A DNA stretch of 64,000 bases from Pseudidiomarina marina (GTDB lineage: Bacteria; Pseudomonadota; Gammaproteobacteria; Enterobacterales; Alteromonadaceae), in the NCBI RefSeq assembly GCF_003987045.1, contig NZ_PIPZ01000001.1, positions 744,001 to 808,000 of the forward strand, written 5' to 3'. The position numbers were made by a program, and so were the translations under genes. This document shows positions 42,255 through 52,740 of the stretch, in pieces. The notes beneath the pieces were generated by a model. That model did no database searches, had not been told where the DNA came from, and saw nothing but the letters and a program-made list of their open reading frames with translations. Position 1 is the stretch's first letter. The number at the start of each line of letters is the position of its first letter.

Positions 42255-42330
42255 TGGCGTCCCCTAGGGGATTCGAACCCCTGTTACCGCCGTGAAAGGG
42301 CGGTGTCCTAGGCCTCTAGACGAAGGGGAC
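42255..42330 (-). tRNA. tRNA-Glu(TTC), copy 3 of the operon
   Basis: A 76-nt cloverleaf with encoded CCA. The acceptor is GTCCCCT...AGGGGAC plus GCCA, the anticodon loop CTTTCAC gives anticodon TTC, and the T-loop is TTCGAAT. It is nearly identical to E. coli tRNA-Glu. It is last in the minus-strand order Ala-Glu-Glu-Glu. Confidence 0.97.
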
Positions 42331-42353
42331 AAGGACTGAAAAAGCTAGTTACT

Positions 42354-42423
42354 CGTTATTCGTTATTGGTTATCGTTTTACTCTTTCGAATAACCAATAA
42401 CGAATAACGAATAACGAATAACG
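42354..42423. repeat. Family 2 heptamer element, copy D
   Basis: A perfect 20-bp inverted repeat, CGTTATTCGTTATTGGTTAT (42354-42373) with its complement at 42390-42409, surrounds a 16-nt loop. The right side continues with two extra AATAACG units to 42423. The loop sequence CGTTTTACTCTTTCGA is almost the same as in copy E. It lies between two tRNA-Glu genes, so the hairpin would be in the precursor RNA. Confidence 0.9.
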
Positions 42424-42441
42424 CTTTTGCTTTTAAAGAAG

Positions 42442-42517
42442 TGGCGTCCCCTAGGGGATTCGAACCCCTGTTACCGCCGTGAAAGGGCGGTGTCCTAGGC
42501 CTCTAGACGAAGGGGAC
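42442..42517 (-). tRNA. tRNA-Glu(TTC), copy 2 of the operon
   Basis: Identical in sequence to the neighbouring copy (76 nt, anticodon TTC, CCA encoded). Its 3' flank (CGCTTTTGCTTTTAA, then GAAG) is shared almost exactly with the 42255 copy, showing that gene plus flank were duplicated together. Confidence 0.97.
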
Positions 42518-42531
42518 CCCGGACAAACATT

Positions 42532-42610
42532 CTGGTTACTCGTTACTGGTTATTCGTTATTGACCTTCGTTTTGCTCTTTCGAGTAACGAAAAACGAATA
42601 ACGACTAACG
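42532..42610. repeat. Family 2 heptamer element, copy E (diverged)
   Basis: Degenerate CGTTACT/GGTTATT/CGTTATT units (42532-42560) are followed by a loop containing CGTTTTGCTCTTTCGA. The right arm is CGAGTAACGAAAAACGAATAACGACTAACG in type (42580-42610). It is the most diverged of the family and lies between tRNA-Glu copies 1 and 2. The loop shared with copy D indicates common origin. Confidence 0.8.
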
Positions 42611-42620
42611 TTCTATAGAG

Positions 42621-42696
42621 TGGCGTCCCCTAGGGGATTCGAACCCCTGTTACCGCCGTGAAAGGGCGGTGTCCTAGGCCTCTAGACGAAGGGGAC
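42621..42696 (-). tRNA. tRNA-Glu(TTC), copy 1 of the operon
   Basis: A 76-nt tRNA identical to the other two Glu copies, with anticodon TTC and encoded CCA. It lies 49 nt downstream of tRNA-Ala on the minus strand. The spacing of the three copies is 179 and 187 nt start to start. Confidence 0.97.
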
Positions 42697-42745
42697 GCAC
42701 CAGAACAAATCACTATCAAGTTTTCACTACTGTAAAGCGCAGCTT

Positions 42746-42821
<76 letters not shown>

Positions 42822-42872
42822 ACACCAACACTGAAATTCGTGTGCTGCATCAGTACCCTGACAGCGGGGCGA

Positions 42873-42902
42873 ATTCTAGGGTAATTGGCGCACTACCGTC
42901 AA
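42873..42902 (-). promoter_or_regulatory. Promoter of the tRNA-Ala/Glu operon
   Basis: On the minus strand, TTGACG (42897-42902), an 18-nt spacer and TAGAAT (42873-42878) are followed by the GC-rich discriminator TCGCCCCGC. GC-rich discriminators are typical of stringently controlled stable-RNA promoters. Confidence 0.8.
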
Positions 42903-42962
42903 CCTTTTTTTTGGTAATTTTGTTTGTTTGCCGAATTTTGCGTCAGTTCGAACAAATCCCGA

Positions 42963-43574
42963 TCAATTTCGTCTAAGTACGCAGTAATTAAACTTTTGTT
43001 CAGACCCGTTCGGGGTTTTGTGAATTTCACGCTCGGTATGCACTAAGGTGAAGTGTTCAGCAAAAACTTCAGCCAATTGTTGCGCCGAATAGCGCTGTAC
43101 GGGTAGCCCACTACATTTTTCTGGGCCATCTTCAGCGAATGTTGCAATAATCGCATAACCGCCCTGCTCTAAAGCTTTTGCTGCTTGAGTAACATAAGAC
43201 TGTTGTTGTTCTGGGGTCATTAAAAAATGAAACACCGCGCGATCATGCCAAATTGAAAATTGCGCTTTAGCAAATGCCGTGGTGAGTACATCGCCCACCA
43301 ACCACGTTACATTCTCTGCTTTCGCTTTTAAACGTTTTTTCGAAGTCGCTAATGCACTTGCTGATAAATCAAGCGCGGTGATATTGGCAAAGCCTGCGGC
43401 CAGTAGGTTATCGATTAACCGCGACGCCCCGCTCCCCACATCAATAATCGCGGCTTCGTGACTCATACCGGTATCGGTAATCAGTCGCAGCGAAGTTTCA
43501 GCCCTTGACTGGTACCAACTAACACGATCCACTGCCTTTGTTTTATAAACGTCTTCCCAATGATTATCTGCCAT
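42963..43574 (-). CDS. Class I SAM-dependent methyltransferase
   Basis: A 203-residue methyltransferase. SAM motif I is IIDVGSGASRLIDNLLAAG (about 43-61), the acidic motif II is ITALDLSASAL, and NVTWLVGDVLT is motif III. The N-terminus HWEDVYKTKAVDRVSWYQ and HDRAVFHFLMTPEQQQSYV are typical of a small group near thiopurine/tellurite-type methyltransferases. The substrate is unknown. It lies 19 nt downstream of the carbonic anhydrase gene and is probably co-transcribed with it. Confidence 0.85.
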   Translation of the reverse strand: MADNHWEDVYKTKAVDRVSWYQSRAETSLRLITDTGMSHEAAIIDVGSGASRLIDNLLAAGFANITALDLSASALATSKKRLKAKAENVTWLVGDVLTTAFAKAQFSIWHDRAVFHFLMTPEQQQSYVTQAAKALEQGGYAIIATFAEDGPEKCSGLPVQRYSAQQLAEVFAEHFTLVHTEREIHKTPNGSEQKFNYCVLRRN

Positions 43575-43593
43575 ATGGTATGTCGCCTATGTG

Positions 43594-44226
43594 TTACTCA
43601 TCGAAGTGATAAATTCGCTCTAATGATGCACGATCACGCACCGTCACTTCCATGTCTCGCACTAAGCCGTCCTCAATACTATAAACCCAGCCATGAATAG
43701 CTAACTCTTGGCCACGATCCCATGCCTGTTGGACAATTGTCGTCTTTGCCAAATTTCGCACCTGTTCAATCACGTTCAGTTCGCAAAGTCTATCCAAACG
43801 CTCTTTGTCACCGACAATGCTTTCAAGTTCGTCATGGTGAATACGATAAATATCTTTAATTGGAAACAACCAATGGTCAACTAAACCGTGGCTACAACTC
43901 TCCGTGGCGGCTCGCACGCCACCACAACCATAATGTCCAACAACTAAGATGTGCTTTACAAAGAGTGTTTCAACCGCATATTGCACCACCGACAAGCAGT
44001 TAAAATCCGTTTGAATGACTTGATTTGCCACGTTACGGTGCACAAACAGTTCACCCGGTGCCATGCCAACAACTTGATTGGCAGGAACTCGGCTATCTGA
44101 ACAACCAATCCACAAATATTCTGGCGTCTGTTGCGCGACCAAATTATTAAAAAACGTGGGATCTTGCTCGAGCATCCGTTTCGCCCAAGCTTGGTTGTTA
44201 GCCAACAACTTATCAATTTCTAGCAT
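43594..44226 (-). CDS. can: Beta-class carbonic anhydrase
   Basis: A 210-residue beta carbonic anhydrase interconverting CO2 and bicarbonate. The zinc ligands are in WIGCSDSRVPANQ (Cys, with the Asp-Arg dyad) and VVGHYGCGGVRAA (His and Cys). FVHRNVANQVIQTDFN is also typical. The length and sequence match E. coli Can. Bicarbonate made here would serve biotin carboxylases such as LiuD, but no regulatory link is visible. Confidence 0.95.
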   Translation of the reverse strand: MLEIDKLLANNQAWAKRMLEQDPTFFNNLVAQQTPEYLWIGCSDSRVPANQVVGMAPGELFVHRNVANQVIQTDFNCLSVVQYAVETLFVKHILVVGHYGCGGVRAATESCSHGLVDHWLFPIKDIYRIHHDELESIVGDKERLDRLCELNVIEQVRNLAKTTIVQQAWDRGQELAIHGWVYSIEDGLVRDMEVTVRDRASLERIYHFDE

Positions 44227-44250
44227 GCTTTAATTCTCTGAGAGATATAG

Positions 44251-44278
44251 AAAAAAGGCGCCAAGTTGGCGCCTTTTC
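44251..44278 (-). terminator. Rho-independent terminator of gltX
   Basis: Read on the minus strand, the stem AAGGCGCCAA / TTGGCGCCTT with a 1-2 nt loop is followed by a run of T residues. It lies 5-32 nt after the gltX stop and separates it from the carbonic anhydrase gene. Confidence 0.88.
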
Positions 44279-44282
44279 CGAG

Positions 44283-45692
44283 TTACTGCGCTTGCTCACG
44301 TTCAATAATAAACGAAATAGCACGAGCAATACGTCCTACCACTTGTTCTTGCGACAATAATTCTAACGTCACATCAAGTGATGGTGAATTACCCGAACCG
44401 GTTACCGCTACACGCAATGGCATGCCGACTTTACCCATGCCAACGCCGAGGTCATCGGCCGTTTGCTGAATAGCAGCCTGAATACTCGCCGCGTTCCAAC
44501 TATCAACGCATGCAAGACGATCTTGGACAGCTTCAAGAGCTTCGCGCGCTACCGGACGCAAATGCTTCTTGGCGGCGGCTTCGTCAAATTCCTCATACTC
44601 TTCATAGAAGTAACGGCTTTGCTCGGCCATTTCTTTTAGCGTTTTCACACGATCGGCCATCAACGGAATTAGCTTCTCAAGCGCTGGACCGCGACTCACA
44701 TCAATTGCTTGATCGGTAAAGTGCCATTGTAAATAAGGAACAACGCGCTCAACAGGGAGTGACTTCATATAATGCTGGTTCAACCAATTCAGTTTCTCAG
44801 TGTTAAATGCCGATGCCGCTTTATTTACATCATCAAGGCTAAATAGCTTCACCATTTCATCAACACTAAAAATCTCTTGGTCACCGTGCGACCAGCCTAA
44901 GCGTACTAAATAGTTCAATACCGCTTCAGGCAAATAGCCGTCATCGCGATATTGCATGACGCTAACCGCACCATGACGCTTTGATAATTTCTTACCATCA
45001 TCACCTAAGATCATCGATACATGCGCATACTCTGGCACCGGTGCGCCAAGCGCTTGTAAAATATTAATCTGACGCGGCGTATTATTAATGTGATCTTCAC
45101 CACGCACCACGTGCGTAATATTCATTTCCCAATCATCGATAACCACACAGAAGTTGTACGTAGGCGTACCGTCGCTACGCGCAATAATTAAGTCATCCAG
45201 TTCGGTGTTCGCAAATTCAATTGGCCCGCGAATATGATCATGAAACTTCACACTACCTTGTTGCGGGTTACGGAAGCGCACCACATATTTGTCGCCAGAT
45301 ACATTCGGGTTATCGCGGCAATGACCATCATAGCGAGGCTTCTCACCACGAGCCATTTGGTCTTCGCGCATTTTTTCCAACCGCTCAGTTGAGCAATAAC
45401 ACTTGTATGCTTTATCTTCTTCTAACAGTTTATCGATGTAATGCTCGTAGCGATCAAAACGCTTGGTTTGATAGTACGGACCCTCATCCCAATTCAAACC
45501 TAGCCATTCCATACCTTCTAAAATGGCATCAATGGCTGGCTGAGTTGAACGCTCACGATCCGTATCTTCAATACGCAGTACGAACTTTCCGCCAGCCGCT
45601 TTAGCAACCAACCATGAGTACAAAGCGGTGCGTGCACCACCAACGTGAAGGTAACCAGTAGGACTTGGGGCAAATCGGGTGACCACTGTCAT
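44283..45692 (-). CDS. gltX: Glutamyl-tRNA synthetase
   Basis: A 469-residue class I synthetase. The HIGH-type motif is [18 protein letters not shown] and the KMSKS-type motif is [13 protein letters not shown] (about 238-250). [10 protein letters not shown] and the C-terminal helical anticodon-binding domain are present. The length is standard for a discriminating bacterial GluRS. It is located between its cognate tRNA-Glu cluster and the tRNA-Val pair. The ATG lies about 200 nt from the divergent tRNA-Val promoter. Confidence 0.97.
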
Positions 45693-45890
45693 AATTCTTG
45701 CTTTCTCCGCATTATTCGGGTTATTTTGCAGTTTCGTTAGGTGTGTATTCTACCAAGAAGCAGCGGCAGACGCATTAGACGAAAGCATAGATTATTGCGT
45801 TTTTAGCAAGTAGGTACAAAGCAGGATGTTGATTTTTACGGCAAAGCGGGGAAAAAATCAGCAGTCGAACAAATCAAGTGAGATTTCCTG

Positions 45891-45918
45891 TTGACAGTAT
45901 CGTTAAGCACCCTATAAT
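45891..45918 (+). promoter_or_regulatory. Promoter of the tRNA-Val genes
   Basis: TTGACA (45891-45896), a 16-nt spacer and a perfect TATAAT (45913-45918) are followed by the GC-rich discriminator ACGCCCCGC. The consensus elements plus GC-rich discriminator indicate a strong stable-RNA promoter under stringent control. Confidence 0.92.
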
Positions 45919-45940
45919 ACGCCCCGCAACGCAGAGAAAA

Positions 45941-46016
45941 GGATGGTTAGCTCAGCTGGGAGAGCACCGCCCTTACAAGGCGGGGGTCACTGGTTCGAAC
46001 CCAGTACCATCCACCA
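45941..46016 (+). tRNA. tRNA-Val(TAC), copy 1
   Basis: A 76-nt cloverleaf: acceptor GGATGGT/ACCATCC plus ACCA, anticodon stem CCGCC/GGCGG with loop CTTACAA (anticodon TAC) and T-loop TTCGAAC. Confidence 0.97.
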
Positions 46017-46043
46017 CTTCTTCATTTTCTCTGTCTCCCTGAT

Positions 46044-46119
46044 GGATGGTTAGCTCAGCTGGGAGAGCACCGCCCTTACAAGGCGGGGGTCACTGGTTCG
46101 AGCCCAGTACCATCCACCA
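46044..46119 (+). tRNA. tRNA-Val(TAC), copy 2
   Basis: A 76-nt copy differing from copy 1 only at one T-loop base (TTCGAGC instead of TTCGAAC). It is 27 nt after copy 1 and on the same transcript. The family 1 hairpin repeat begins 20 nt downstream. Confidence 0.97.
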
Positions 46120-47156: not shown

Positions 47157-49172
47157 TTAAAGCAGTTTAAGTTGTTCGCGGAGTTTCGCTACATCATCTC
47201 GCAACGCCGCCGCCTTCTCGAATTCCAGATCTTTGGCCGCCTGATACATCGCCTTTTCAGTTTGCTCAATCTTTTGAACCAACGCTTTTGGATCATACAT
47301 TGCTGGATCGTAAGCCACGTCGGGCTCAGATACGCGCTGTTTCTCGCGACGCGGTGCCCGAATGCCACCACCGAGGTCCATCACGTCGGTCACACGTTTG
47401 TTCAAGCCTTTCGGGGTGATACCGTGCTCTTCGTTATATGCAACTTGCTTGGCGCGGCGGCGATCGGTTTCGTCAATGGCTCGCTGCATCGAGCCCGTGA
47501 TGCGATCCGCATAAAGTATGGCGCGACCGTTGAGATTACGAGCGGCGCGACCAATGGTTTGGATCAATGAGCGATCCGAGCGAAGGAAGCCCTCTTTGTC
47601 GGCATCAAGAATAGCGACGAGAGACACTTCAGGCATATCCAAGCCCTCACGTAGTAAGTTAATGCCGACTAATACATCGAACTCACCCAAACGCAAATCT
47701 CGAATAATTTCCATGCGCTCGACCGTATCGATGTCTGAATGCAAATAACGCACACGAATGCCATGTTCGTCCAAGTAATCAGAAAGATCTTCTGCCATTT
47801 TTTTGGTTAAAGTCGTGGCAAGAACACGTTCGTTACGTTCGACACGCAAACGCACTTCCGACATTAAGTCATCAACCTGTGTAGCAACCGGACGAATCTC
47901 GATTTCGGGGTCAATCAGTCCAGTTGGGCGAACAACTTGTTCCACCACTTCGCCTGCCGATTTTTCAATCTCATACTTGCCTGGTGTCGCTGAAACATAG
48001 ATGGTTTGCGGTGCAATGGCTTCAAATTCTTCAAACTTTAACGGTCGGTTATCTAAGGCCGACGGTAAACGGAAACCATAATTGACCAAGTTTTCTTTGC
48101 GCGAACGGTCGCCTTTGTACATCGCACCAATTTGCGACACGGTCACGTGTGACTCATCTATAATGAGCAACGCGTCGTCTGGCAAGTAATCTAAGAGCGT
48201 TGGTGGTGGCTCGCCCGGCGCACGCCCTGATAAATAGCGTGAATAGTTTTCGATGCCCGAGCAATAACCAAGCTCTAGCATCATTTCAATATCATATTGA
48301 GTGCGTTGACTTAATCGCTGCTCTTCTACCAATTTATTAGAATCCAGAAGCTGTTGCTTACGCTCTTTCAACTCTTCTTTAATACGCTCAATGGCATTTA
48401 AGATGGTTTCGCGCGGCGTAACGTAATGCGTTTTAGGATAAACGGTTGCACGTGCAACATCGGCTTCGGTCACCTGCCCTGTCAACGGTTCAAAAAAGCT
48501 AATACGATCAATTTCATCGTCAAACAATTCAACGCGAATGGCTAACTGCTCTGATTCAGCAGGGAATATATCAATCACTTCACCACGCACACGATACGTA
48601 CCACGCTCAAACGCAGCATCGTTACGCTTATATTGCAATTGTGCCAAGCGTCGAAGAATATCCCGCTGATCAATCAAATCGCCGCGCCGCAAATGCAGCA
48701 TCATTTTCATGTATGACTCAGGGTCACCTAAGCCATAAATACATGACACCGAAGCCACCAACACAACATCACGACGCTCCATTAATGCTTTCGTCGCCGA
48801 CAACCGCATTTGCTCAATGTGATCGTTAATTGACGCATCTTTCTCAATAAATGTATCCGTGGTGGGAACGTACGCTTCTGGTTGATAGTAATCGTAATAA
48901 GACACGAAATACTCAACCGCATTATTTGGAAAGAATTCTTTCATCTCGCCATATAACTGCGCAGCAAGTGTTTTGTTATGCGCAAGAATGAGCGTTGGTC
49001 GTTGGATTCTTTGAATCACATTGGCCATGGTGAAAGTTTTACCAGAGCCAGTAACGCCTAATAAGGTTTGATGGGCTAACCCCGCATCCAAGTTATCAAC
49101 CAAGCGCTCGATGGCTGCAGGCTGATCGCCGGCTGGCTGATAATCAGACTTGAGTTCAAATGCTCGACTCAT
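47157..49172 (-). CDS. uvrB: UvrABC excinuclease subunit B
   Basis: A 671-residue nucleotide-excision repair helicase-like protein. Walker A is [14 protein letters not shown] (about 40-53), the DNA-inserting beta-hairpin is [14 protein letters not shown], the DEAD-like box is [10 protein letters not shown], and motif VI is [10 protein letters not shown]. The C-terminal UVR motif ([18 protein letters not shown]) binds UvrC. The length matches E. coli (673). It overlaps the upstream MATE gene by 4 nt, an unusual operon partner, and family 2 repeat G follows the stop directly. Confidence 0.98.
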
Positions 49173-50587
49173 TTGGTTGCTCCTTCTGCCGCACCGTCTG
49201 CCACGCCTTCTGGCGCATCATGTGCATGTTCTTTCCGTTCATGCATTGTCTCAAGGCGTAAACCACGATGGAACCAGAACCATGCAATAACGCCGGTGAT
49301 CACGTTAGCGATCACGCCGCCAACGAATAACCCAGGAATGTCATAAATAATGGCACCTAACCAACTCAGCGGCACGAACATCACAAATAAGCGGACAATA
49401 CTCAATGCCAATGCATTCATCGGACGGTGCAGCGCATTCAAACTCGAATTAGTTAAAATAATCACGCCCTGCACCCCGTAGCCAAGTGGCATGATGTAGA
49501 TAAACAACCGAATCAGTCGTGCCACTTCTGGATCATCCGTAAACGCAGCCGCAATCCATGGTGCTGTTGCAACCAACACTCCATAAATAAATAGCTGAAC
49601 AATGAGCACACTGCGCACCGCCACCCGATAAGCAGCACCAACGCGATCAAACGAGTGTGCACCAAAATTTTGACTAATCAACGGTGGTAACGACATAGAT
49701 AGCGCCAGAATTATCACGCTTGCTAGTGATTCAAGTCGGGTACCGACACCAAATGCAGCAACCGCCGGAGCCCCGTAAGCCGCAATAATTGCAGTAATAA
49801 CCGCCATAGCCAATGGGGTTAGCATGTTGGCACCAGCCGCTGGTATCCCGATATTCAAAATTTGCCGCGCTGAGCGCAACCAACTAGCATCAGCCGGCGC
49901 TTTGAGTGATAACAACTCTTTGTAGCTGAGATACCACAGCACCAATGCCGAACCAATAATCCAGGAAATTAAACTTGCGAGCGCTGCGCCTTGCACGCCC
50001 ATCGCCGGAATCGGCCCTATACCGAATATCAATATTGGATCAAAAATAGCGTTAAGTAGCCCGCCAGATGCCATGATCAACGACGGTGTTCGGGTATCAC
50101 CTGCGGCGCGTAATACAGCATTGCCAACCATTGGGGTCACCAACAATACAGCACCTAAAAACCAGATTGTCATGTAGTCATGAATGTACGGTAACAAGCG
50201 CTCTTGGGCGCGTAGCGCAGCGAAGATTGGATCCATGGTGAGGTAGCCAATGACCGACAAGATAATGACTAATAGTGCCGACACGGATAACGCCGTTGCG
50301 CCATCGAATTTGGCATGTTCCTCTCGGCCGGAGCCCCGCTTGCGCGCAATAACAGCGGACGTACCAATTCCTAAACCAATGGCTAAACTCACAATGGTGA
50401 AGGTGACTGGAAAAGTAAAACTAACGGCTGCCAACGGGTCTGTGCCCAACATACCGACGAAAAAAGTATCAACCACGTTAAAGCTAATTAGCGTCAACAC
50501 ACCAATGATCACCGGCCAAGTCATCCGCCAGAGAGTGGGCTGAATAGGATCGTGCAGTAATGATTTTGCCGCTACAGCTTGGCTCAT
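49169..50587 (-). CDS. MATE-family multidrug/Na+ exporter
   Basis: A 472-residue protein with 12 predicted membrane helices in two MatE halves. [36 protein letters not shown] is the first half's conserved region and [17 protein letters not shown] begins the second. The C-terminal tail is hydrophilic with His and Glu ([14 protein letters not shown]), a feature not needed for transport. It should export cationic compounds with a Na+ or H+ gradient. It lies directly upstream of uvrB (4-nt overlap). Confidence 0.93.
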
Positions 50588-50741: not shown

Positions 50742-51929
50742 GTGAAATACCAACTATCTGACCGTGTTAACGCTATTCAACCATCGCCAACGCTTGCTGT
50801 CTCGCAAAAAGCTGCCGAACTCAAAGCTGCTGGCCATGATGTGATTGGTTTGGGTGTGGGTGAACCTGATTTCGATACCCCCGAATTTGTCAAAACAGCA
50901 GCAAAAGCTGCGATTGATGCTGGTCATACGAAATACACTGCTGTTGACGGTATACCGCAACTCAAGCAAGCCGTGGTCGATAAATTTAAGCGCGATAACG
51001 GCTTAACCTATGAAACCAGCGAAATTCTCATTTCCGCTGGCGGTAAGCACAGTATTTTTAATTTATTGAGCGCTTGGCTTAATCCTGGTGACGAAGTACT
51101 CATTCCAGCGCCGTATTGGGTTTCGTACCCGGATATGTCCATCTTAGTGGGCGCCGTGCCGAAATTCATTGAGGCAGGTATTGAGCAACGCTATAAAATT
51201 ACTGCCGAGCAATTAGCTGCAGCAATTACCCCGAAAACACGTTTAATGTTTTTGAATAGCCCATCAAACCCGACTGGAACAGCTTATACCAAAGCTGAAT
51301 TAGAAAGCCTTGCCGAAGTATTGCGTCAACATCCGCAAATTCTGATCGCCACCGACGATATGTACGAGCACATTTTATGGAGTGACGAGAGCTTCCATAA
51401 CATTGCGATGGTTGCGCCAGATTTGAAAGACCGCATTGTGATTTTGTCAGGCGTATCGAAAGCGTACGCCATGACCGGTTGGCGAATTGGTTATGCGGCT
51501 GGTCCAAAACCACTGATTGCCGCGATGAAGAAGATTCAATCGCAAAGCACCTCAAACCCAGCCAGCATCAGCCAATGGGCTGCGCTTGCTGCACTGGAAG
51601 GTGACCAGAGCTGTATCACCGATATGGTTAAAGCGTTTAAACAGCGCCACGATTATCTCGTAGAAGCCCTTAATGAAGTTCCTGGCATGAAATGCATTGC
51701 TGGTGACGGCACCTTCTATACATTTGCTAATATTGATGAGCTAATCAGCCAAAAAGGCGCCAGTTCAGACGTTGAATTGTGCGAGATGATTTTGAATGAA
51801 GCCAAAGTGGCATTAGTACCAGGTACCGCCTTTGGTGCGCCAGGCCACTGCCGCTTCTCATTCGCCTGTAGTCTCGACACGTTAAAAGAGGCAGTAAAAC
51901 GTATTAAAGCGTTTGCCGAAAACGCTTAG
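50742..51929 (+). CDS. Class I PLP-dependent aminotransferase (aspartate aminotransferase type)
   Basis: A 395-residue fold-type I aminotransferase of the Igamma (AspC/AAT1b) kind. LGVGEPDFDTPEFVKTAAK starts the family and LNSPSNPTGTAYTKAEL is the substrate region. The PLP lysine is in SGVSKAYAMTGWRIGYAAG (about 240), and the C-terminal RFSFACS has the arginine that binds the substrate carboxylate. The start is GTG. It probably transaminates aspartate and glutamate, though related enzymes accept aromatic acids. A terminator follows. Confidence 0.94.
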   Translation: MKYQLSDRVNAIQPSPTLAVSQKAAELKAAGHDVIGLGVGEPDFDTPEFVKTAAKAAIDAGHTKYTAVDGIPQLKQAVVDKFKRDNGLTYETSEILISAGGKHSIFNLLSAWLNPGDEVLIPAPYWVSYPDMSILVGAVPKFIEAGIEQRYKITAEQLAAAITPKTRLMFLNSPSNPTGTAYTKAELESLAEVLRQHPQILIATDDMYEHILWSDESFHNIAMVAPDLKDRIVILSGVSKAYAMTGWRIGYAAGPKPLIAAMKKIQSQSTSNPASISQWAALAALEGDQSCITDMVKAFKQRHDYLVEALNEVPGMKCIAGDGTFYTFANIDELISQKGASSDVELCEMILNEAKVALVPGTAFGAPGHCRFSFACSLDTLKEAVKRIKAFAENA

Positions 51930-51983: not shown

Positions 51984-52499
51984 CATGAAATATTCATGTG
52001 ACATGACGATGACAGCGTTGCGAAAACACCTGTTTAAAATATATTCGTCACAAAAAATTAATCTTCGCAAAAACACTGGTTTATAAGCGCCCTATTAGCG
52101 TCGCTTTTGTGTACAAATCAGGTAAGAAATACACAATCGTTGCGTCAAAATGCGACGGACGACATGTCGCCTTAAAAAACTTTAAAGGCTCTGTAAAGGT
52201 CGCATATAAATATTTGTTATATATACACTTTTAATTTCATAGTCAATTTTTAAGCAATCGCTAAATCAGCCCGAAAAGCCCACCGTTAAAAGCAACTCAC
52301 ACAGTTTCCCACAAGGTTATCCACAGATTTAGTGGATAAGATTGTCTAGCCTTTGAAACACGTGCGATCGGCTTCCATGTGGATAACCAAGGACAACTCA
52401 AACATATATCATTTGGTATATAGACAAGGATTGTGACTACTTGACTTTAATTTTTTCATAGGGTTTGCGCACAAAACAAGCAAACAGCATTTTTTAGTA
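51984..52499. other. Long AT-rich intergenic region
   Basis: About 515 bp without a convincing gene on either strand; the few short frames are under 30 codons and lack ribosome binding sites. The part from 52200 to 52260 is very AT-rich with TATATA-type runs. 52315-52388 holds three DnaA boxes. 52406-52424 is an imperfect AT palindrome. The region precedes the tRNA-Asn promoter at 52500. Confidence 0.7.
52315..52388. promoter_or_regulatory. Cluster of three DnaA boxes
   Basis: TTATCCACA (52317-52325) and TGTGGATAA (52378-52386, reverse orientation) are exact matches to the strict DnaA box. AGTGGATAA (52331-52339, reverse orientation) differs only in its last-equivalent position. The outer two extend to an 11-bp inverted pair, GGTTATCCACA and TGTGGATAACC. 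TTTCCCACA at 52305 is a weaker look-alike. Three high-quality boxes within 70 bp outside a replication origin are unlikely by chance. Possible roles are DnaA titration (datA-like), DnaA reactivation (DARS-like) or DnaA control of the downstream tRNA promoter. Confidence 0.75.
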
Positions 52500-52550: not shown

Positions 52551-52627
52551 TCCCCAGTAGCTCAGTTGGTTAGAGCGGTGGACTGTTAATCCATGTGTCG
52601 TTGGTTCGAATCCAACCTGGGGAGCCA
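52551..52627 (+). tRNA. tRNA-Asn(GTT), copy 1
   Basis: A 77-nt cloverleaf: acceptor TCCCCAG/CTGGGGA plus GCCA, anticodon stem GTGGA/TCCAT with loop CTGTTAA (anticodon GTT) and T-loop TTCGAAT. Confidence 0.97.
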
Positions 52628-52663
52628 AGACATCTACAACACCCCCGAATACCCCTTAAGTAT

Positions 52664-52740
52664 TCCCCAGTAGCTCAGTTGGTTAGAGCGGTGGACTGTT
52701 AATCCATGTGTCGTTGGTTCGAATCCAACCTGGGGAGCCA
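52664..52740 (+). tRNA. tRNA-Asn(GTT), copy 2
   Basis: A 77-nt exact copy of the first tRNA-Asn, 36 nt downstream. Its last base is 1 nt from the stop codon of the convergent glycosyltransferase gene, so there is no room for a terminator between them. Confidence 0.97.

What the first reader, a model, noticed from the sequence alone, without database searches (positions are those of the whole stretch)
52315..52388. Three DnaA boxes in an intergenic region before tRNA-Asn genes
Two exact strict boxes and one near match within 70 bp, with an 11-bp inverted outer pair, lie far from any recognisable origin gene. E. coli regulates initiation with non-origin DnaA-box loci (datA, DARS1, DARS2), and datA lies near tRNA genes. 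This could be a functional equivalent in this lineage.
Basis: partly seen in the sequence, partly recalled or inferred. Interest (0 to 1): 0.6.

Follow-up and report, generated by a model that had tools for sequence, protein, structure and literature searches.

The report
DARS1-type DnaA-recharging site near uvrB
This short stretch of non-coding DNA is the marine-bacterial counterpart of E. coli's DARS1, a landing pad that very likely recharges the replication-starting protein DnaA, and its relatives point to a further such site that E. coli appears to lack.

Summary
On the minus strand the sequence is TTATCCACT-N5-TGTGGATAA-N3-TGTGGGAAA (52339 down to 52305): box I facing boxes II and III, spacing 9-5-9-3-9. 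That is exactly the core layout of E. coli DARS1 and DARS2. The third core box (52305-52313) lies outside the reported interval. The reported outer box (52378-52386) is an extra, fourth box.

Identity is settled by position. The core lies upstream of uvrB, in the same orientation, in 54 of 58 genomes tabulated from 14 families, and in 22 of 80 loci fetched through UvrB alone. E. coli DARS1 is the bioD-uvrB site. So this is a DARS1 orthologue, not a datA analogue; the tRNA-Asn neighbours are incidental.

In this genus the core lies about 3 kb from uvrB and has an invariant fourth DnaA box 38 bp from box I (23 of 23 loci). The genome shows no DARS2 core at mutH. It carries a second DARS-like core at dapE, which in other families adjoins pta: a candidate for the "speculated DARS3". 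No function was tested.

The parts
52305..52339 (-). DARS core (boxes I, II, III; spacing 9-5-9-3-9)
   Evidence: 0 of 300 shuffles
52331..52339 (-). DnaA box I, TTATCCACT (one mismatch; identical to E. coli DARS1 box I)
52317..52325 (+). DnaA box II, TTATCCACA (strict), opposed to box I across 5 bp; invariant in 23 of 23 genus loci
52305..52313 (+).
52378..52386 (-). Accessory fourth DnaA box, strict, 38 bp beyond box I; same sequence and offset in 23 of 23 genus loci, not in loci outside the genus
52238..52266 (.). Partly conserved AT-rich block of unknown role (possible protein site; IHF test inconclusive)
47157..49172 (-). uvrB, the deeply conserved neighbour; the core lies upstream in the same orientation
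49169..50587 (-). MATE-family transporter gene, overlaps uvrB by 4 bp
50742..51929 (+). Aspartate-transaminase-like gene between the MATE gene and the core
52551..52740 (+). Two tRNA-Asn genes beside the site (present in 23 of 23 genus loci)

Best explanation
The site is the DARS1 orthologue of this bacterium: a cis-acting, non-coding DnaA-reactivating sequence. ADP-DnaA binds boxes I and II head to head, with box III next to box II stimulating the complex. Contact between the two AAA+ domains loosens ADP, apo-DnaA leaves and picks up ATP, and the rise in ATP-DnaA promotes the next initiation at oriC. In this genus an extra strict box 38 bp beyond box I, fixed in position, probably recruits or anchors a further DnaA molecule. 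Shown here: sequence, layout, conservation, synteny and conservation of the DnaA protein. Inferred from E. coli biochemistry: DnaA binding, ADP release and the effect on initiation. A guess from invariance only: the role of the fourth box.
For: (1) Layout identical to E. coli DARS1 and DARS2: 9-5-9-3-9, box I opposed to II and III; a review states that this spacing and orientation are shared by both DARSs (PMC5742627, passages). (2) Synteny: core upstream of uvrB, same orientation, 238 to 3150 bp away, in 54 of 58 genomes of 14 families; in 3 of the 4 misses uvrB lies on another contig, and in one (G047) no uvrB-linked core was seen. (3) Independent of any box search: of 80 loci fetched through UvrB, 22 have the core upstream in uvrB orientation; facing box pairs with a 5-bp gap number 22, all other facing gaps from 0 to 40 bp together 5. 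(4) Genus: 22 of 23 relatives match (the other, G023, is 88% complete in 280 contigs); of the 20 with uvrB on the same contig, 19 have it 2.9 to 3.2 kb away and one at 22 kb. (5) Positive control: the 9 genomes of family f18, whose cores resemble those of E. coli, show cores at both uvrB and mutH in 9 of 9. (6) The organism's DnaA matches E. coli DnaA at 329 of 461 aligned residues and at 78 of 94 in the DNA-binding domain; R227, D269, R285, L290 and R334 are kept.
Against: No binding or nucleotide-exchange data exist for this organism. Box III is weak and variable in the genus (up to 3 mismatches). In E. coli the same site also represses uvrB transcription (PMC6015884, passages), so conservation beside uvrB need not come from DnaA reactivation alone. 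DnaA residues listed for DiaA contact differ here (E21 to N, F46 to Y) and R245 is G. 40 of 197 genomes of the order have no core at 3 mismatches or fewer.
Confidence: 0.9

Rival explanations
1. A DnaA-dependent operator: DnaA bound here regulates transcription of uvrB, as reported for E. coli uvrB, and reactivation of DnaA is secondary or absent.
For: In E. coli DnaA represses uvrB promoters through boxes that include DARS1 (PMC6015884, passages). The core keeps its orientation and linkage to uvrB across families.
Against: In this genome the core is 3150 bp from uvrB, with a MATE gene overlapping uvrB and an oppositely oriented aminotransferase gene in between, so it is not in a uvrB promoter; yet the core is intact in the genus. 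The same layout recurs at mutH, dapE and pta.
Confidence: 0.05
2. A datA-like sink that titrates DnaA or hydrolyses its ATP, placed near tRNA genes.
For: Several DnaA boxes away from dnaA, beside tRNA-Asn genes in 23 of 23 genus loci, with an extra fourth box.
Against: The layout matches the DARS cores exactly and the deep synteny is with uvrB. Some titration is compatible with a DARS.
Confidence: 0.03
3. Regulation of the tRNA-Asn operon by DnaA.
For: tRNA-Asn lies beside the core in all 23 genus loci and in G110, G055, G028, G038 and G024.
Against: The outer box ends 164 bp before the tRNA. E. coli DARS1 has no annotated tRNA neighbour, and none was found beside the uvrB-linked cores of G027 (L072) and G033 (L092).
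Confidence: 0.01
4. Chance cluster of boxes.
For: Two strict boxes within 70 bp occur in 15 of 300 shuffles.
Against: Core layout in 0 of 300 shuffles; conservation across the genus and across families.
Confidence: 0.01

Closest known systems
E. coli DARS1 (bioD-uvrB intergenic region)
   Same: Box I 9-mer identical (TTATCCACT), box II identical, spacing 5 and 3 bp identical, orientation relative to uvrB identical.
   Different: Separated from uvrB by two genes (3150 bp), flanked by tRNA-Asn instead of bioD, and carries an invariant fourth strict box 38 bp outside box I that E. coli DARS1 lacks.
E. coli DARS2 (upstream of mutH)
   Same: Same core layout.
   Different: Different gene neighbourhood. 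DARS2 has IHF and Fis sites (PMC4245941, PMC8682772, passages), of which no convincing counterpart was shown here. No core was found at mutH in this genome.
E. coli datA
   Same: A non-origin chromosomal DnaA-box cluster (PMC5742627, passages).
   Different: datA promotes ATP hydrolysis with IHF through its own box set (PMC5742627, passages); its sequence was not aligned here.

Membership tests
DARS (DnaA-reactivating sequence) | Three DnaA boxes, I opposed to II and III, spacing as in E. coli DARS1 and DARS2 | tested here: met
   feature stated in PMC5742627 (passages)
DARS (DnaA-reactivating sequence) | Stimulates ADP release from DnaA and raises ATP-DnaA | not testable with these tools
   Needs biochemistry.
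DARS (DnaA-reactivating sequence) | Bound by DnaA in vivo | not testable with these tools
   Needs ChIP-seq; E. coli DARS1 is a ChIP-seq peak (PMC11317965, passages).
DARS1 | Located upstream of uvrB in the same orientation | tested here: met
   Own genome 3150 bp; 54 of 58 genomes; 22 of 80 UvrB-led loci
DARS1 | Only a minimal accessory flank beside the core | tested here: inconclusive
   A fixed fourth box is present; IHF-consensus matches at 2 mismatches or fewer in 22 of 23 loci against 0.78 expected per shuffled locus say little.
DARS2 | Upstream of mutH | tested here: not met
   mutH lies on contig C3 and the site on C1; no core at mutH
datA | datA box set with IHF site; DnaA-ATP hydrolysis | not tested
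   datA was not aligned; layout and synteny match DARS1 instead.

The most novel reading that the evidence does not exclude
The order to which E. coli belongs ancestrally carried three DARS-type loci, not two: uvrB-linked (DARS1), mutH-linked (DARS2) and a pta/dapE-linked DARS3. The lineage of this window lost or degraded DARS2, kept DARS3 (here beside dapE, in a genus in which no pta was found), and armed DARS1 with a fixed fourth DnaA box, so that DnaA recharging runs on a different pair of sites than in E. coli.
Probability: 0.45. Interest if true: 0.65.

Novelty: new member of a known kind. Interest (0 to 1): 0.5.

Why it matters
It turns a vague cluster of boxes into a named control element with a testable biochemical activity in a lineage away from the Enterobacteriaceae. 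It shows that the core stays intact even where two genes separate it from uvrB, so the element itself, and not only uvrB regulation, appears to be under selection. The related loci give a concrete candidate for the third DARS that has been speculated about (PMC4585315, one passage), and let one ask why some lineages lack the mutH-linked site that dominates in E. coli.

Tried and rejected
Rejected: the datA and tRNA-control readings (see rivals). Tried without result: distant DNA similarity to E. coli gave, in the rows shown, only tRNA-Asn. An IHF site in the flank: matches are hardly commoner than in shuffles. A DARS-like core at E. coli pta or yffB-dapE: none at 5 mismatches or fewer in total. 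For 40 loci around cores from other Gammaproteobacteria (cores from some of the 123 genomes with a match), tblastn found no UvrB, MutH, Pta, DapE or DnaA gene. Literature: searches listed no paper in this library on DARS in Idiomarina or Alteromonas, nor on a pta- or dapE-linked DARS; the original DARS papers behind the reviews (for example Fujimitsu 2009) were not read.

Limits of the counts: one search covered 197 genomes, 157 with a match, but printed only part of the matches. One search uses printed genomes minus 10 that I dropped to meet the 80-handle limit (G193, G214, G088, G133, G146, G154, G129, G096, G180, G060), plus four genomes whose matches came (G024, G028, G033, G038); it is therefore conditional on a core being present. 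From the typed list I left out hits that overlap a core on the other strand, and some additional 2- and 3-mismatch hits, for example beside DARS2. In one search the label 'opp' for rows taken is an artefact of the query strand; for G024, G028, G033 and G038 the core and uvrB point the same way. In one search pta was sought in 49 genomes only, 5 of them of this genus.

Full report
What is there. On the plus strand the window reads, from 52305: a box TTTCCCACA (52305-52313), 3 bp, TTATCCACA (52317-52325), 5 bp, AGTGGATAA (52331-52339, i.e. TTATCCACT on the minus strand), and 38 bp further TGTGGATAA (52378-52386). Read on the minus strand the first three are TTATCCACT-AAATC-TGTGGATAA-CCT-TGTGGGAAA. 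The same scan of E. coli K-12 gives TTATCCACT-ATTCC-TGTGGATAA-CCA-TGTGTATTA upstream of uvrB (DARS1) and TTATTCACC-TTTTC-TGTGGATAG-AGT-TGTGAAGAA upstream of mutH (DARS2). All three share 9-5-9-3-9, with box I opposed to II and III. A review names equal spacing and this orientation as common to both DARSs (PMC5742627, passages only); [quoted passage not shown]

More than chance. The core layout arises in 0 of 300. Genome-wide a relaxed core is found at two places, with 0 for the reversed pattern.

Conservation in the genus. The 221-bp region matches in 29 of 40 genomes including the own one; of the 23 other genus members, 22 match. A pattern search of the genus finds at least one core in 24 of 24 genomes; G023 (88% complete) shows only the second, dapE-type core and G016 (86%) only the one of this site. 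In the 23 genus loci box II and the TGTG of box III are invariant; box I has one mismatch to the consensus in 22 and none in one. The fourth box is an exact TTATCCACA starting 47 bp before box I in 23 of 23, while the spacer and most flanks diverge. No strict box sits at that offset in the loci outside the genus, and a box with at most one mismatch near it is seen in 2 of 30. It is therefore a feature of this genus.

Synteny across families. In the order, 157 of 197 genomes have a core at 3 mismatches or fewer; family f24 (genomes of 0.2-0.3 Mb), family f7 and nearly all of f3 have none. Of the 58 genomes tabulated, 54 have a core upstream of uvrB. The UvrB-led test does not depend on any box search: 22 of 80 loci carry the core upstream, all in uvrB orientation. 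They include Vibrio, Photobacterium, Aeromonas, Shewanella, Pseudoalteromonas, Colwellia, Paraglaciecola, Rheinheimera, Rodentibacter and several Enterobacteriaceae; one is labelled only uncultured Gammaproteobacteria. The other 58, mostly other orders and phyla and also two Ursidibacter, have none upstream; some of those have short upstream stretches, so absence there is not proven. The block uvrB - (MATE-type gene) - core - tRNA-Asn - rsxA-like gene recurs in other genera of the family and in other families (the MATE and rsxA names in those loci are read by eye, not tested). In this genus an aminotransferase gene lies between the MATE gene and the core.

Which organism. The window's family includes G186, whose contig has the same length as one of Alteromonadaceae bacterium BrNp21-10 (815,152 bases).

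How it most likely works. In E. coli, ADP-DnaA molecules on boxes I and II meet head to head through their AAA+ domains, box III stimulates, ADP leaves, and apo-DnaA reloads with ATP (PMC8682772 and PMC10380432, passages). The DnaA of this organism matches E. coli DnaA at 329 of 461 aligned residues and keeps R227, D269, R285, L290 and R334. Three differences are told: E21 to N and F46 to Y at the DiaA/DnaB contact, and R245 to G. Binding and exchange at this site are inferred. The fourth box may hold another DnaA molecule near the core; this is a guess from its invariance.

Against a uvrB operator as the main role. In E. coli DnaA represses uvrB through this site among others (PMC6015884, passages). 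Here a gene overlapping uvrB and an oppositely oriented gene separate the two, yet the core is intact.

Other DARS-like loci. In this genome a second core (TTCTCCACA-N5-TGTGGATAA-N3-TGTGAGTTA) lies 424 bp upstream of dapE. In the genus, 22 of the 23 genomes with this core have dapE on the same contig, 423 to 957 bp away; the 23rd (G023) had not been searched for dapE. In the rest of the family 12 of 13 second cores are dapE-linked, and the 13th (G208) is pta-linked. In three family members the core lies between pta and dapE, which ties the two positions together. In families f9 and f12, 13 of 14 third cores lie 110 to 3744 bp downstream of pta, all in the orientation opposite to pta; in the 14th pta is on another contig. 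No pta was found in the own genome and four other genus members searched. E. coli has no such core at either place. None of the 15 tabulated genomes of this family outside one search's genus relatives (own genome included) shows a mutH-linked core at 3 mismatches or fewer; a relaxed scan of 8 mutH loci found a diverged one in G075 only. A third DARS has been speculated for E. coli (PMC4585315, one passage). Beyond the order, 123 of 184 genomes of the class sample have a core at 2 mismatches or fewer, with 0 for the reversed pattern in every row. Of 40 loci fetched there, 37 cores lie outside predicted genes and 9 lie within 150 bp of a priA-family gene (family named from one member).

Verdict. 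A DARS1 orthologue with high confidence; function inferred; a new member of a known kind, with a genus-specific fourth box. The larger novelty lies in the pta/dapE-linked cores.

Noticed in passing
own genome C1:322833-322867 (L066 7834-7868); also L067-L071, L076-L080, L082-L086: A second conserved DARS-like core upstream of the arsC-like/dapE genes in this family and downstream of pta in families f9 and f12: candidate third DARS locus, not found at the two E. coli positions.
   Followed up: partly
own genome C3:82000-86500 (L175) and 7 other mutH loci of the family (L177-L183): No DARS2 core at mutH in the own genome and in 6 of 7 other loci; G075 (L181) has a diverged one 217 bp upstream of mutH.
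   Followed up: partly
L186, L192, L196, L205, L207, L213, L216, L218, L221: In other Gammaproteobacteria a DARS-like core lies within 150 bp of a priA-family gene (replication restart helicase) in 9 of 40 loci, in several of them with argS further along.
   Followed up: partly
own genome dnaA on C3 (L001): DnaA has G at the position of the E. coli B-motif Arg245, and N and Y at the DiaA/DnaB contact residues E21 and F46.
   Followed up: no
L016 (G014): One genus member has the core and its tRNA-Asn pair 22 kb from uvrB instead of about 3 kb; an insertion or rearrangement is likely.
   Followed up: no
window 42255-46119: Further tRNA clusters (three tRNA-Glu and one tRNA-Ala; two tRNA-Val) within about 10 kb of the site.
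   Followed up: no
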